DNA of 64,000 nucleotides, from assembly GCA_030949325.1 (NCBI GenBank), contig JAUZSQ010000104.1, positions 18,827-82,826 on the forward strand. The letters run 5' to 3'. Positions 22,788 through 32,692 of the stretch are shown in pieces; the stretch's first letter is position 1, and every line of letters starts with the position of its first letter. The DNA is from Sulfurovum sp. Lineage in GTDB: Bacteria > Campylobacterota > Campylobacteria > Campylobacterales > Sulfurovaceae. The translations under genes were made by a program, and so were the position numbers. The notes beneath the pieces were generated by a model, which was not told where the DNA came from, did not search any database, and saw only the letters and a program-made list of their open reading frames with translations.

Positions 22788-24482
22788 TCAAGAAGAACAG
22801 GTAATATGTGATATTCCAGCAATGTCAAAAAATTCACTAGGCTTTAGGGCATAGTATTTCTCTTCTATCTCTTTAGACTGTTCCTCATAAGGTTTTGTCA
22901 TCACTTCTTGTAATTCTCTAATGAGCGTATAGTCTCCTTGATTGGCTTGTTCGTAGGCAGGGACTAAATGCCATTCTCTGAGTGTGTATTTTGGGTTTAC
23001 TCGCTTTCATTTGTTTTGAAAGTGTTTCATGTGACTTAGGGTTGCTTGTTTGAATAAGTGCATTCCACTTTTCTAGCCACTGTGACCAACGCTGTCATCA
23101 AGGCTTGATTTTCTGAGGCATCCCCATAAAAGCTTTCTATGAGTGGAGCTCATCTCTTCGAGGTGATGTAGGAGAGTTCACGAAAGAAAATTGTATAATC
23201 TACAGAAGTTTCTACCATCAATAAAAAAAGCTCTTTATAGAGTTCGGCATCAAAAGTTTGGAGTCCAAGCTTCGAAGCCCACATCTTTTGCATCTCTTTT
23301 TGCATGACTTGTGAAAAACCTCTTTTTGTCTCTTCTAGTCTGCGTAAATCCTCTTTGTTTGATTGAAGTAATGGGGCTAAAGCATTACAGAATACAGCAA
23401 AATTTCGTTCTCCTGCTAAGGGTTGATTGAGGAAAGAAAAATGTACCCCACCTCCTGTCCAAGGCTGATATTTGGGGTTAAATATATCTATAAATCCAAA
23501 AGGACCATAATCTAAGGTAAATCCTCCTGCTGGACAATTGTCACTATTGAAATTTCCTTGACAATAGCCCACACGCACCCAATTGGCTATAAGTGCAGTC
23601 AAACGCGTACGAAATTCGTTTGCGAGTAAGAGGACTTTTTGGCTCATAGGTAAATTTTTATCAATGACTTCACTGTATTCACGCTCAATCAAGTGCAAGA
23701 CGATTTGTTCTAGCTCTTCCATCGCTTTGGGATGCTCATTTTTTCTAGCACGACGAGCAAAAAGTTCTATTTGTCCTACACGAAGAAATGAGGGAGCCAC
23801 GCGTGTGGAGATAGCAATACTTTCATCTATCATGAGTTCGGGGTCTTTGGAGTATGAGCCTTTGTGAAACCACGGACGCTTGACGGTTTGCGTTTGTGAA
23901 GTAAACAAACTTAAAGAACGAGAAGTCGGAACGCTCAGGGCATACATCTGTTCTTGTGCCAAAAACTCACGAACACTAGAACGCAAGACTGCACTCCCGT
24001 CTGCACCACGACAATAAGGCGTTCTGCCCTCCTCCTTTGAGTTGCATTTCCCATCGTTTACCCTTTAGCACCCCTTCAAAGATAGAAATCGCACGACCAT
24101 CCCCATACCCATTGCCTGTCTTAAAAGGACATTGCTCATAATATTCTGTACCATAAATAGAAAGTGCATACCCACAAGCCCAACCGACTTTAGACATACC
24201 TTCTGGAGTCTGAGAAATATCCCCTGAAAACATACGAACAAAATCCTCAGATTGGGCTAAAACCTCATCAAAACCTAGCTCAGCAAACAACTGTTTACTG
24301 TGTGCAATATATTGTGGTTGTTCTATAGGTGTTGGTGTAACAGGCACATAATGTCCAGAAAAGACTTGCCGTGGGTCGTGGTCTATACCGTCTTTGGTAG
24401 CTTGTGGGTCAGAGTTGAGGGTTTTCATGAGTGAGTAATCTGCCAAAGTTGCTAAATCGTTGAGTGTTTTTATGCCTTGCAT
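22788..24482 (-). pseudogene. selO: SelO/YdiU-type protein adenylyltransferase, frameshifted
   Basis: ORFs 23976-24482 ([11 protein letters not shown]...[12 protein letters not shown]...[24 protein letters not shown]) and 23150-23986 ([26 protein letters not shown]...[29 protein letters not shown]); C-terminal remnant ...[15 protein letters not shown] in other frames to 22788. Confidence 0.85.
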
Positions 24483-24543: not shown

Positions 24544-24584
24544 CAATACCTTAGCCAAAAAGCAAAGCCAAAAATAATATATAA
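24544..24584. mobile_element. Remnant of the left end of the IS4-superfamily element found at 27704
   Basis: CAATACCTTAGCCAAAAAGCAAAGCCAAAAATAA is near-identical to the 27704 terminus; abuts IS3-type copy A. Confidence 0.6.
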
Positions 24585-25943
24585 TGTACCCCATAACCAG
24601 TACCAAAAAAGTAAATCATTATTCCAAAAAGCAATAAAATGCTAAAATATAAATAATAAAGCAAGGGGTATAAAATGAGTAGAAAAAGAAGAAAACATAT
24701 AGTGCAGAGTATAAAGCCAAATTAGTAGTGGAAGTTCTGAGAGAGGAAAGGACCCTCAATGAGATAGCCAGTGAGTTATGGAAGTTTCCACCTAAGAGTC
24801 TCCTAAAATTGGAAAAGCAATTTTTAGAAAATGCTTCACTAGCATTTGATAAAAGTGCAGTGGTCAAAGAGTATAAAGAACAGATTGGAAACTCTTGAAA
24901 GAGAGAAAGATGCAACTTCAGAAAAGCTGGGTGAAGTGGATAGTAGAAAGAGACTTCAGCCGGGAAAGCTAAAAGCTCTCGGTATCCTCTAAAAGTAGAA
25001 AAGAACTACTGGAAACTGGGCTTGAAATATCCAAAAATACACAGCTAAAACTATTGAGTATTCCTAAGAGTTCAATCTATTATAAAGCCAGTAGTACCAT
25101 TCAGTAGTGATATGAGATCAAGAGATACTCAATGTGATAGATAAAATCTATACAAAGTATCCCTATTATGGACATAGAAGAGTGCATAAACTGTTAGGTA
25201 GATTTAACTTTACCATCGGACGAAAGAAGGTTAGGAGTGCAATGAAGCTCATGGGTATCATCGCCTTATATCCGAAGCCTAAGACAAGCCGTAGCGTAAT
25301 AAGGAGCATCAGAAATATCCATATTTATTGAAGGCAATTTAAGAATGATAAAAATCAAGTGGTTATTGATAAACCCAATCAAGTTTGGAGTACCGATATT
25401 CACCTATATCAAATTGGACAAAGGCTTTGTCTATTTGGCTGCAGTCATTGATTGGAACACCAAAAAGATACTCTCTTGGAAGCTCTCAAATACGATGGAT
25501 GTATCACTCACAACTGGGGTACTGAAAGAAGCCTTGGAGAAGTATGATAAACCTGAGATATTTAACACAGACCAAGGTTCTCAATATACAGCAAAAGAGC
25601 ATATTCAAATATTAGTTGATAACAATATTTCTATTTCAATGGATGGAAAGGGAAGAGCCACTGACAATACTGTGATTGAGCGTTTTTGGAGGTCACTTAA
25701 ATATGAAGATGTTTATCCTCAAAGCTACTCGACCATCATAAGAAGCTAGAACGGGGATAGGAAAGTATATCAATATTTACAACACAGAAAGACTTCATCA
25801 AACTTTGGACTATGCTACTCCTGATGAAATGTATTTTAAAGGGGTGAATAATCAGGTATTTCAGAGTAGGGAAATGTTACTAGATGTAGCATCCTGAGGT
25901 GGAATAAGGAATTGGATTTTATTGGTCTTGACTTTGGGGTACA
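24585..25943 (+). mobile_element. IS3-type insertion sequence, copy A (frameshifted orfA/orfB)
   Basis: Terminal repeats TGTACCCCATAACCAG... and ...CTTGACTTTGGGGTACA; orfA fragments (MSRKRR...), orfB DDE pieces 25134-25331 and 25345-25749. Confidence 0.88.
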
Positions 25944-27579
25944 TTTTAGTTGTACCATCAAAACTATTACACCCTTTTTTAAACAACTTAGGTAAATATC
26001 GTATAGCTAAACCTACACCAATTACTGTACCCAATAACGCAGGAATGTCATCCAAACTAACCCCATCCCAACCACCAGTAATCACATTGGTAAAGTTAGA
26101 ATAAGCCCCTATTTGCATATTTTGTAAAGTATTTTGTATCCCCATAGCCCCGGAAACACTCATCATAGAAAAATACCCACTAGGGTCAATATTCATCACA
26201 GGATTCCCATTCGCATACAGATACTTATGAAGCGTAATAGGGTCTTGTGAGTTACCCATATAACTATCTTGTTGGGTAAAGCCTCCTCTTAGAGGGCTGA
26301 AATATCTTGAACGGAGGTAATAGTTTTGTGTTTCCTCGTCTAGTTGTTCTCCTGTGAACTTGTAGTGGTTTGTGGTGTTTCCTTCGCTATTGAGGAGCTT
26401 TCCAAAGGCTTCGTAGTTGTAGCTATCGGTAAATGTTCCGTTTTGGTCTGATAAATATCTCGCCGAGCCTAAGCCGTCATAGTGATAGTCGTAGGTTTTG
26501 TTTTGTCTTGTTTGGCTGAGTAAATCGTGTCCATAAGTGTAGCTTACGCTTAGGCTCTCGTCTTCTATCTCTTGGACGACTTGTGCGTAGGCTTGGTTTG
26601 AGTCTATGATGTATTGGGTAGTTTGGTCTGTTTTGCTTTTGGCTGTTCTTATGCCTTTTAGATTGTAGCTGTAGGTAATGGTATCGCTGTCTGTGGCTAC
26701 AACTATCAGTTGATTTTTGGCATTGTAGCTATAGTCTGTCACATTATAATCAAGGGTTTGGCTTAGGGTGTTTCCTTGCTCGTCATAGGTGTAGATTGTC
26801 CCACCTTGTTGGAGCAGTCTATCGTTATCATCATAATCATATTGTGTCGTCACTCCGTCTATGGTACTTGCAATCGTATTACTCACTTCATCGTAAGTGT
26901 AGCTAGACGTGTAATCACCGTTTTTACTGTCTGTTATCTCTTCGCTTATCACGCGTGAGAGGTCATCATAGTTGTAGTGTGTGCTTCTGTTGTCTTCTAC
27001 TATCTCTACTCTTTCACCTAGTGGGCTAAGGGTATAAGCAAAAGTAGCCAATGTGTTTGCATTGGCATCTTGATGTATGAGTGAAGTAAGTCTATTGAGA
27101 TTGTCATAGCTGTAAATCTCTTGGGTTCCATTGGCATGGGTGAGTGTTTTGAGATTTCCTAGGTCATCATAGCTGTAGTTTGTGGGTTCTCCTTGTGGAG
27201 AGATGACGGTTTTGAGACGGTTGAGTGTGTCGTATTGGTATTGGGTAGTGCTTACTTCATTGTTGGCATTGCTAAGTGTAAAGGTAAGTAGATTTCCTAC
27301 ACTATCATATTCATATTCCAGTATTGCAGCACTTGGCTGTACTTCTTTTGTGAGTCTGCCTAAGGTGTTGTGGTAGCTGTAGCTTGTGATGAATGTCTCT
27401 GTGCCTATGGTCATGGTCGTTTGTGTGGTTTGACCTAAAGCATTATAGACAAATTCTTCTTTTTGATTATCTGCGTAAGTGATGGTTTGGATTCTGTCAT
27501 TGCTATCGTAGCTGTAGCTTGTGGTCTGTTTGTTAAAGTCTGTTTTGGTGGCAACTTTTCCGAAGGCATCATAATAAAA
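25861..27579 (-). pseudogene. Rhs/YD-repeat polymorphic-toxin core fragment, truncated at both ends by IS copies
   Basis: YD repeats (YDSVGNLLTF, YDDLGNLKTLTHANG, YDEQGNTLSQT), YHYDGLGSARYLSDQNG, YLRSRYFSPLRGGFTQQDSYMG...YLYANGNPVMNIDPSGYF; reading frame enters IS A at its 3' end; in-frame upstream of M27414 to the IS B end at 27580. Confidence 0.9.
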
Positions 27580-30500
27580 TGTACCCCAAAGTCAAGACCA
27601 ATAAAATCCAATTCCTTATTCCAGCTCAGGATGCTACATCTAGTAACATTTCCCTACTCTGAAATACCTGATTATTCACCCCTTTAAAATACATTTCATC
27701 AGGCAATACCTTAGCCAAAAAGCAAAGGCAAAAATAAAGAGAGGTGATGAGATAACTGCTATAATCTTAAACCAAAAAAACATAAAGTTATCCCATGACA
27801 GAAATTATAACACTCTTAAGATGTATCGCACCTATAATTGCAAAAACAAGCATAAACAACTAGAAATAATCATCCAAGCCTTGCTCTCAATGCGAGGAAG
27901 AATCACAATGTTAGGATTGAGCAGATGGAGTGAAAAAGGAGGGAGTTATCGGACAATTACACGGTTCTTTCATTCAAAGATAAATTGGGAAGAAATCAAT
28001 TGGATGTTTATCAAAACGCATTTAACAAAGAAGGGTTCAATCTATCTTTTGGGTGGAGATGAAGTAGTAGTAAGCAAAAGTGGGAAGCATACTTATGGGG
28101 TAGATAGGTTTTATTCTTCTATCCAAAATCAAGTGATAAAAAGTTTGGCATTTCTCAATCTTTCGTTGATAAGCGTAGAGACAAGAAAAGCCTATCCACT
28201 AAGTACACAACAGATAGTGCGAGACAAAAAAAGAAGGTTGTATCAAAGATAAAAGTGTGAAGAAGAGTAAGAAAAAAAGGATGCTAAAGTCGGAAGACCT
28301 AAAGGAAGTGGGAATCAAGATAAAAAGATATTGAACTCTCACCCTATCTAAAAATTTGTCAAAGAGTCCGTAAATAAGGCACTTAAACGGATTGACAAGC
28401 ATATTGATATTGTCTATTTTGTCTTTGATGGAGCATTTGGAAATAATCCTGCTGTACAAATGGTTAGGCAATGTGGATTGCATATCATTTCTAAACTTCA
28501 AAAAAATTCTGCACTGGTATTTCCTTATAGTGGAGAGTATGCAGGAAGAGGAGCTCCTAGGAAATATGGAGATGCTATTGACTATGATAATCTTCCTGAA
28601 CCCTATCTAAAAATCAGATAGCATAGACGAAGATAAAAATATCCAAACAAGAATTTATCAAATGGAAATGTCCCATCGTAAATTTTCTGATACTCTCAAT
28701 GTTGTGATTATCCAAAAGAGAAATTTAAGCACAGGTAAAATCTCTCATGTGAATCTCTTTTCTACCGATGTAACATTGGATTATGAAAAGGTTATTGATT
28801 ACTATTCACTTCGCTTTCAGATTGAATTTGTCTTTAGAGATGCCAAGCAGTATTGGGGAATGGAGGATTCTATGAACATTAAGAAAATACCTATCCATAA
28901 TTGGGCAAATCTCTCTACTTTTATGGTCAATTTCTCTCATGGATTACGCCAAAATTCTGATATGAATGAGATGAGTATTCTTGACCTTAAAGCCCACTAC
29001 CACGGCTTAAATACGTCAAAGAGGTATTTAAATTGCTTCCCCATTTAGCTAAGCGAGTATTTAATTCAGAAGGTAATCCTATTAAGATAATGCTGAATTT
29101 AGGGGACGATTCATAGCACTCGTGAGAGGTGTGCGCTTAAGAGGGCAGCTTTTGGCTACAGGTATTGATCAGGAGTAGCATCAGCTCTCACAAGTTTGAT
29201 GAAGTACAATTTCTGTGTTGAGTAGATGGATTGATATACGGTGTTCCTATCCCTGTTACTACGCTTCTTTGATGGTCAGAGATAGCTTTGAGGATAGAAC
29301 ATCAATTCATATTTATAGATGACCTCTAACAAAGAATCGTTCAATTATCTTTTGGGTGGAGATAAGTAGTAGTGCAAAAGTGGGACGCATACTGCATACC
29401 TTTCTCCAATAACCAATTGAAATAGAAAGTATTGTTATACAACTAATATTTGAGATATGACTCTTTGACTGTATGATATGAGAACCTTGGTCTGTGTTGA
29501 AATGAATCTCAGGTTTATAATACTGCTCCAAAGCTGGTCTGATTCTAGTACCCCAGATTGATGAGTCGATACATCCATCGTATTTGATAGCTTCCAAGAG
29601 AGTATCTTTTGGTGTTCCAATCAATGACTGCAGCCAAATAGACAAAGCCTTTGTCCAATTTGATATAGGTAATATCGGTACTCCAAACTTGATTGGGTTT
29701 ATCAATAACCACTTGATTATTATCATTCTTAAATGCCTTCAATAAATAGTGGGATATTTCTGATGCTCTTTGATTGGCTATGGTTGTCTTAGGCTTCGGA
29801 TGATAAGGCGATGATACCCATGAGCTTCATTGCAGTCCTAACCTTCTTTCGTCCGATGGTAAAGCCAAATCTACCTAACAGTTTTATGCACTCTTCTATG
29901 TCCATAATAGGGATACTTTGTATAGATTTTATCTATCACATTGAGTATCTCTTGACCTGTATCACTACTGAATGGTACTACTGCTTTATAATAGATTGAA
30001 CTCTTAGGAATACTCAATAGTGTTTAGCTGTGTATTTTTGGATATTTCAAGCCCAGTTTCCAGTAGTTCTTTTCTACTTTTAGAGGATACCGAGCTCGTT
30101 TAGCTCTCCCACGACGAAGTCTCTCTTCTACTATCACTTCACCCAGCTTCATATGAAAGATTGCATCTGTTCTCTCTCTCAAGAGTTTCAATCATGTTCT
30201 TTATACTACTTTATGACCACTGCACTTTTATCAAATGCTAGTGAAGCTATTTTCTCAGAAAAAATTGCTTTTTCCAATTTTGGAGACTCTTAGGTAAAAA
30301 CTTCATAACTACTTGGCTATCTCATTGAGGGTCTTTTCTTCTCTCAGAACTTCCACTACTAATTTGGCTTTATACTCTGCACTATATGTTTTTCTTTTTC
30401 TACTCATTTTATACACCTTAGCTTTATTATTTATATTTTAGCATTTTATTGCTTTTTTGGAATAATGATTTACTATTTTTGGTGCTGGTTATGGGGTACA
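27580..30500 (-). mobile_element. IS3-type insertion sequence, copy B (degenerate), interrupted by an IS4-superfamily element
   Basis: Ends TGTACCCCAAAGTCAAGACC at 27580 and GGTTATGGGGTACA ending 30500; interior matches copies A/C in reverse complement with many indels. Confidence 0.88.
27704..29167 (+). mobile_element. IS4-superfamily insertion sequence nested in IS3 copy B; transposase frameshifted
   Basis: Inverted ends CAATACCTTAGCCAAAA / TTTTGGCTACAGGTATTG; 6-bp direct repeat ATCAGG at 27698-27703 and 29168-29173; transposase pieces 27821-28252, 28392-28610, 28662-29048 with YSLRFQIEFVFRDAK (Y-x2-R-x3-E-x6-K). Confidence 0.88.
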
Positions 30501-30516
30501 TTGATAGCGTGAGAAG

Positions 30517-32074: not shown

Positions 32075-32692
32075 TTACTTTGATAATCTATTCATTGTAC
32101 TTTCCTCTCCCATAAGCCTTGGCTTATAGTTTATGAGAAAATCCCCTTTTCCTTTTCCTTTTGCAAAACTACTTCTATAACCCAAACCTTCTAGTATGAA
32201 TCTTGTGTGACTCCTAGCTTCTTCATTACTCCATTGCTCATATTCTATTCTGTAAAGAGCAGAATAAATTTGTGCACGACCTGTTCCATGATAACAGTGT
32301 ATTAATACTGGATAATTTGATATATCATCAAGAGCTTCAAAAAATTTAACTAAAGTCTCTTTAGTTGGTACTTGTAAAGAAGGTATTCGTATATGTTTTA
32401 CCTTTTTATCATACTTCTTATTATAAGCTAAAATAGCCTCATCTTCTAAAAGAATATCATTGATAAATGCTGGGTTCAAGTTATCTTGAATATGTGGATT
32501 AAGTAAATTAATAACAGTATTTATTTTATTTTCTTCTAGGTAATACCCCAATTTATTTGGGTCTATAAGACCAGACTTATAAACTTTATTTTCTGTAATC
32601 GTTTTAAAGTTAAAATTATATTCTATCATCCAGATATAATATATTAGGCTAATCGCTACCCCACTTAACAGTATTTTTAAAACATTTTTCAT
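32075..32692 (-). CDS. Dual-specificity/tyrosine phosphatase-like protein, membrane-anchored
   Basis: N-terminal TM, VLIHCYHGTGRAQIYSALYR = HCx5R phosphatase signature. Confidence 0.8.
   Translation of the reverse strand: MKNVLKILLSGVAISLIYYIWMIEYNFNFKTITENKVYKSGLIDPNKLGYYLEENKINTVINLLNPHIQDNLNPAFINDILLEDEAILAYNKKYDKKVKHIRIPSLQVPTKETLVKFFEALDDISNYPVLIHCYHGTGRAQIYSALYRIEYEQWSNEEARSHTRFILEGLGYRSSFAKGKGKGDFLINYKPRLMGEESTMNRLSK

What the first reader, a model, noticed from the sequence alone, without database searches (positions are those of the whole stretch)
25861..27579. Rhs polymorphic toxin decapitated at both ends by inverted IS3 copies; new C-terminus encoded by the IS
The YD-repeat core and RHS hyperconserved end are intact up to ...KKGCNSFDGTT, which looks like the start of a pretoxin HINT region, then the frame enters the IS end and reads KMYPKVKTNKIQFLIPPQDATSSNISLL. 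The N-terminal side begins exactly at the other IS copy's end. Both IS copies point their right ends inward. The toxin tip and its immunity gene are absent here.
Basis: partly seen in the sequence, partly recalled or inferred. Interest (0 to 1): 0.6.

Follow-up and report, generated by a model that had tools for sequence, protein, structure and literature searches.

The report
Rhs toxin gene wrecked by IS elements
This is a leftover middle piece of a bacterial Rhs toxin gene in a Sulfurovum-like genome, cut off at both ends by copies of a jumping gene; it is an ordinary broken gene, not a new kind of toxin.

Summary
In detail: window 25949-27574 (minus strand) is a 542-codon open piece of an rhs/YD-repeat gene. 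It is bounded at the exact base on both sides by right ends of the same IS3-family element, pointing inward. The IS inserted in the first codons of that domain; the 28-residue C-terminus is IS read-in found in no homologue. The missing N-terminus was not found in the assembly (93% complete). A second rhs tip with HINT, candidate toxin and candidate immunity gene lies on another contig. It overlaps the fragment (91% DNA), so it is a paralogue or displaced tip, not the severed half; it too is truncated, beside an IS66 element. Corrections: the right IS copy is a full-span copy split by an IS701-like element. The IS interiors are garbled (IS3 and IS701 words interleaved at 29175-29580), so linkage across the IS copies is unsafe, although the two junctions look clean. 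Most likely an IS-inactivated rhs pseudogene whose other parts were lost or are unassembled. Low interest.

The parts
25949..27574 (-). Rhs fragment: YD repeats, Rhs-associated core, first codons of PT-HINT (542 codons, no stop)
25861..25948 (-). Read-in to the IS3 right end giving the 28-aa terminal peptide and the stop codon
24580..25948 (+). Left IS3-family copy; both termini present, interior frameshifted (23 gap openings)
27575..27703 (-). Right IS3 copy, its right-end part abutting the rhs fragment
27704..29174 (+). IS701-like (DDE_5) element splitting the right IS3 copy
29165..30502 (-). Remainder of the right IS3 copy (89% identity, 53 gap openings); 29175-29580 is a garbled IS3/IS701 blend
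24544..24577 (+). 34-nt IS701-like end relic beside the left IS3 copy

Best explanation
An rhs polymorphic-toxin gene of a Sulfurovum-like bacterium was hit by two copies of a 1359-bp IS3-family element in opposite orientations: one in the core (N-terminal side), one in the first codons of the PT-HINT domain. The parts beyond both insertions (secretion and N-terminal region; HINT, toxin tip and immunity gene) were then lost or separated by IS-mediated deletion or recombination. What remains is a non-functional core relic in an IS graveyard. The insertions are shown. Loss versus non-assembly of the flanking parts, the route of the rearrangement, and loss of function are inferred.
For: Both junctions are exact canonical IS right ends. 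The fragment aligns over its whole length to residues 1061-1613 of a full-length same-genus homologue with PKD, RHS, PT-HINT and EndoU domains. The HINT-side junction is confirmed at base level by the sister copy. The rhs N-terminal part was not found elsewhere in the assembly (the only other hits are PKD-like). The flanks of each window IS copy lack the 3-bp duplications seen at C114, C46 and C90, as expected after rearrangement. The core diverged from the sister under constraint (dN/dS about 0.12 over 126 codons). Other close rhs copies are also damaged: C52 is truncated beside IS66 and frameshifted, and the Sulfurovum MAG G050 carries an ISAs1 element in its rhs.
Against: IS interiors in this contig are poorly assembled (differences crowd the interior of the left copy with none in the last ~180 nt), so what lies beyond each IS copy may be misjoined, and the gene could be less rearranged in the real chromosome. 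Missing duplications alone do not prove deletion: only about half of the full IS copies elsewhere show them.
Confidence: 0.8

Rival explanations
1. Assembly artefact in part: the IS junctions are real, but the contig wrongly joins through IS repeats; in the real genome the rhs gene is interrupted by IS copies and its other parts lie right behind them or on unassembled pieces.
For: Interleaved IS3/IS701 sequence at 29175-29580; IS interiors in the window are much worse than copies on other contigs and clean only near the unique flank; the assembly is 93% complete in 115 contigs.
Against: Junctions sit at exact IS termini rather than inside shared repeats; both are right-end junctions, so they need two IS copies; no contig was found to carry the expected left-end/rhs junctions.
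Confidence: 0.25
2. A displaced core fragment of the ordinary rhs tip-displacement kind that was later trimmed by IS elements, never having been the head gene of the locus.
For: Dissociated core-plus-tip fragments are normal in rhs loci (PMC2935791); the sister tip on C52 is of that shape.
Against: The fragment carries a long core (542 codons) with many YD repeats, and no full-length partner gene is found in the assembly.
Confidence: 0.15
3. The truncated core is expressed and does something, using a hybrid promoter made of the IS end (TTGACT at 27595) and rhs sequence (TATGAT ending 27568).
For: A 10-of-12 promoter-like match straddles the junction; the frame is still open.
Against: The number of promoter-like matches is not above chance (9 found, 6.1 +/- 3.2 expected); the first ATG is inside the YD repeats at 27414; no signal peptide, HINT or toxin.
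Confidence: 0.04

Closest known systems
Dissociated rhs fragments and relics (Jackson et al. 2009, PMC2935791)
   Same: Silent core pieces separated from full-length genes, without a proper start, decaying
   Different: Those have a partial core plus a recognisable tip and arise by tip displacement; this one has lost its tip and is bounded by IS ends
Rhs/YD-repeat polymorphic toxin with PT-HINT and EndoU tip, full length in G073 (L033)
   Same: 59-61% identical over the whole fragment; same YD core, Rhs-associated core and HINT start
   Different: G073 keeps the PKD N-terminal region, HINT, toxin tip and a following candidate immunity gene
IS3 family (NCBIfam NF033516)
   Same: Intact C11 copy encodes a 402-aa IS3 transposase (287 bits, cut-off 160); TGTACCCC...GGGGTACA ends; 3-bp duplications at some copies
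   Different: Transposase in a single frame, without the usual orfA/orfB frameshift (usual arrangement recalled from general knowledge)

Membership tests
Rhs / YD-repeat polymorphic toxin | YD/RHS repeats | tested here: met
   PF05593 8.1e-19, TIGR01643 6.6e-18
Rhs / YD-repeat polymorphic toxin | Rhs-associated core domain | tested here: met
   TIGR03696, positions 1-75 of 76
Rhs / YD-repeat polymorphic toxin | N-terminal export region and complete shell | tested here: not met
   Fragment starts at the IS end, corresponding to residue about 1061 of the homologue
Rhs / YD-repeat polymorphic toxin | C-terminal toxin tip with downstream immunity gene | tested here: not met
   IS sequence follows NSFDGTT; a tip and candidate immunity gene exist only on C52
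IS3 family (flanking elements) | IS3-type transposase with rve core | tested here: met
   C11 copy: PF00665 3e-26, NF033516 1.8e-85
IS3 family (flanking elements) | Terminal inverted repeats and short target duplication | tested here: met
   TATAATGTACCCC / TAAAATGTACCCC; 3-bp duplications at C114, C46 and C90, absent at the window copies
Composite transposon carrying rhs | Two intact outer IS ends with one target duplication around the whole unit | tested here: not met
   Outer flanks of the two copies do not match; right copy is split and its left end altered

The most novel reading that the evidence does not exclude
The core shell without tip is kept and expressed from an IS-made promoter as an exapted or decoy Rhs shell, or serves as a recombination reservoir for catching new tips.
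Probability: 0.03. Interest if true: 0.5.

Novelty: new member of a known kind. Interest (0 to 1): 0.12.

Why it matters
It is a clear example of IS elements dismantling a large polymorphic-toxin locus in a Sulfurovum-like genome, and a caution about reading gene structure across IS copies in draft assemblies. It does not change understanding of Rhs toxins.

Tried and rejected
Natural C-terminus with the IS-like peptide: rejected, no homologue matches beyond query residue 491 of 517 among 78 genus genomes. C52 tip as the severed half of this gene: rejected, because it overlaps the fragment over 386 nt at 91%. Composite transposon: outer flanks do not fit. Right IS as a mere 129-nt remnant (my own first reading): rejected, it continues beyond the IS701-like insertion. 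One Pfam call failed on wrong coordinates and was repeated. The genome-contig scan gave one close named relative only, a Sulfurovum MAG. Literature searches found no report of this locus.

Full report
What is there. The minus-strand frame from just inside the right IS end to 25861 is open and reads YD repeats, the Rhs-associated core and the start of a HINT domain. The rhs part proper is 25949-27574, 542 codons. The first ATG is at 27414, inside the repeats; the frame upstream is closed by a stop within the IS end and shows no start codon at the junction. The genome is a Sulfurovum-like draft, inferred from the closest named relative, a Sulfurovum MAG whose contig is the same-genus genome G050; it has 2.53 Mb in 115 contigs, 93.4% complete.

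The IS element. The same right end lies on both sides, facing inward. Copies elsewhere in the genome define a 1359-bp element with ends TATAATGTACCCC and GGGGTACATTTTA, and C114, C46 and C90 show 3-bp duplications. The copy on C11 encodes an intact 402-aa IS3-family transposase. The left window copy spans 24580-25948. The right window copy is not a remnant: it continues at 29165-30502 beyond an IS701-like DDE_5 element inserted at about 27704-29174.

What is missing. In the same-genus genome G073 a homologue aligns to the whole fragment (residues 1061-1613 of the 1881 examined) and has PKD repeats, sixteen RHS repeat stretches, PT-HINT starting at the NSFDG motif, and an EndoU-like tip followed by a small gene in immunity position. 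In the window's own genome a sister copy on C52 shares the DNA up to GATGGTACAAC and then continues into HINT, whereas the window enters the IS. The C52 copy has one apparent frameshift in HINT, a tip of unknown family and a candidate immunity gene, and is truncated on its N side next to an IS66 element. It overlaps the window fragment, so it is a paralogue or displaced tip. No second copy of the window's N-terminal region or tip was found.

Mechanism. Two insertions of one IS in opposite orientations are shown by the junctions. Neither window copy has matching flanks, which fits later deletion or recombination between IS copies; that step is inferred. The core was under purifying selection before it was cut (dN/dS 0.12 against C52, 126 codons). 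Its frame is still open, so the damage is probably recent (inference). A product is unlikely to function: no start at the 5' end, no export signal, no toxin. A promoter-like match spans the junction, but such matches are at chance level.

Reliability. The IS interiors in this contig are poor. At 29175-29580 short words of the IS3 and the IS701-like element alternate, which natural decay would hardly produce. The left copy differs from the other copies at 55 positions, crowded in the interior, with none in the last ~180 nt next to the rhs fragment. This looks like gap filling between unique flanks. The two rhs/IS junctions are therefore credible; the neighbours beyond each IS copy are not certain.

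Known context. Silent rhs fragments with core pieces are common, and relics are reported (PMC2935791). E. coli rhs tips can carry H-repeats, which are IS-like (PMC3032704). The finding is an ordinary IS-inactivated rhs relic.

Noticed in passing
window 29175-29580: Sequence alternates between words of the IS3-family and the IS701-like element, probably a blended consensus in the assembly.
   Followed up: yes
L034:3508-5734 (G050, Sulfurovum): The closest named relative's rhs is broken by an ISAs1-family element (kin of the E. coli H-repeat, from general knowledge) inside the core; an Rpn-family-like gene lies beside it, as beside the C52 tip.
   Followed up: partly
L033:10119-10409 (G073): Small ORF joining a signal-peptide-like start directly to a HINT start, downstream of the full-length rhs; looks like an orphan tip cassette.
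   Followed up: no
L035:9759-10523 (C52): Candidate Rhs toxin tip and candidate immunity gene without any Pfam or NCBIfam match.
   Followed up: partly
window 23150-24482: SelO (ydiU-like) gene split into two overlapping frames by an apparent frameshift.
   Followed up: no
window 32075-32692: DSP-PTPase-like protein with a match above cut-off to Pfam Tc-R-P (polymorphic toxin system phosphatase), among IS copies.
   Followed up: no
L049:1713-2921 (C11): IS3-family transposase encoded in one continuous frame, apparently without programmed frameshifting.
   Followed up: no
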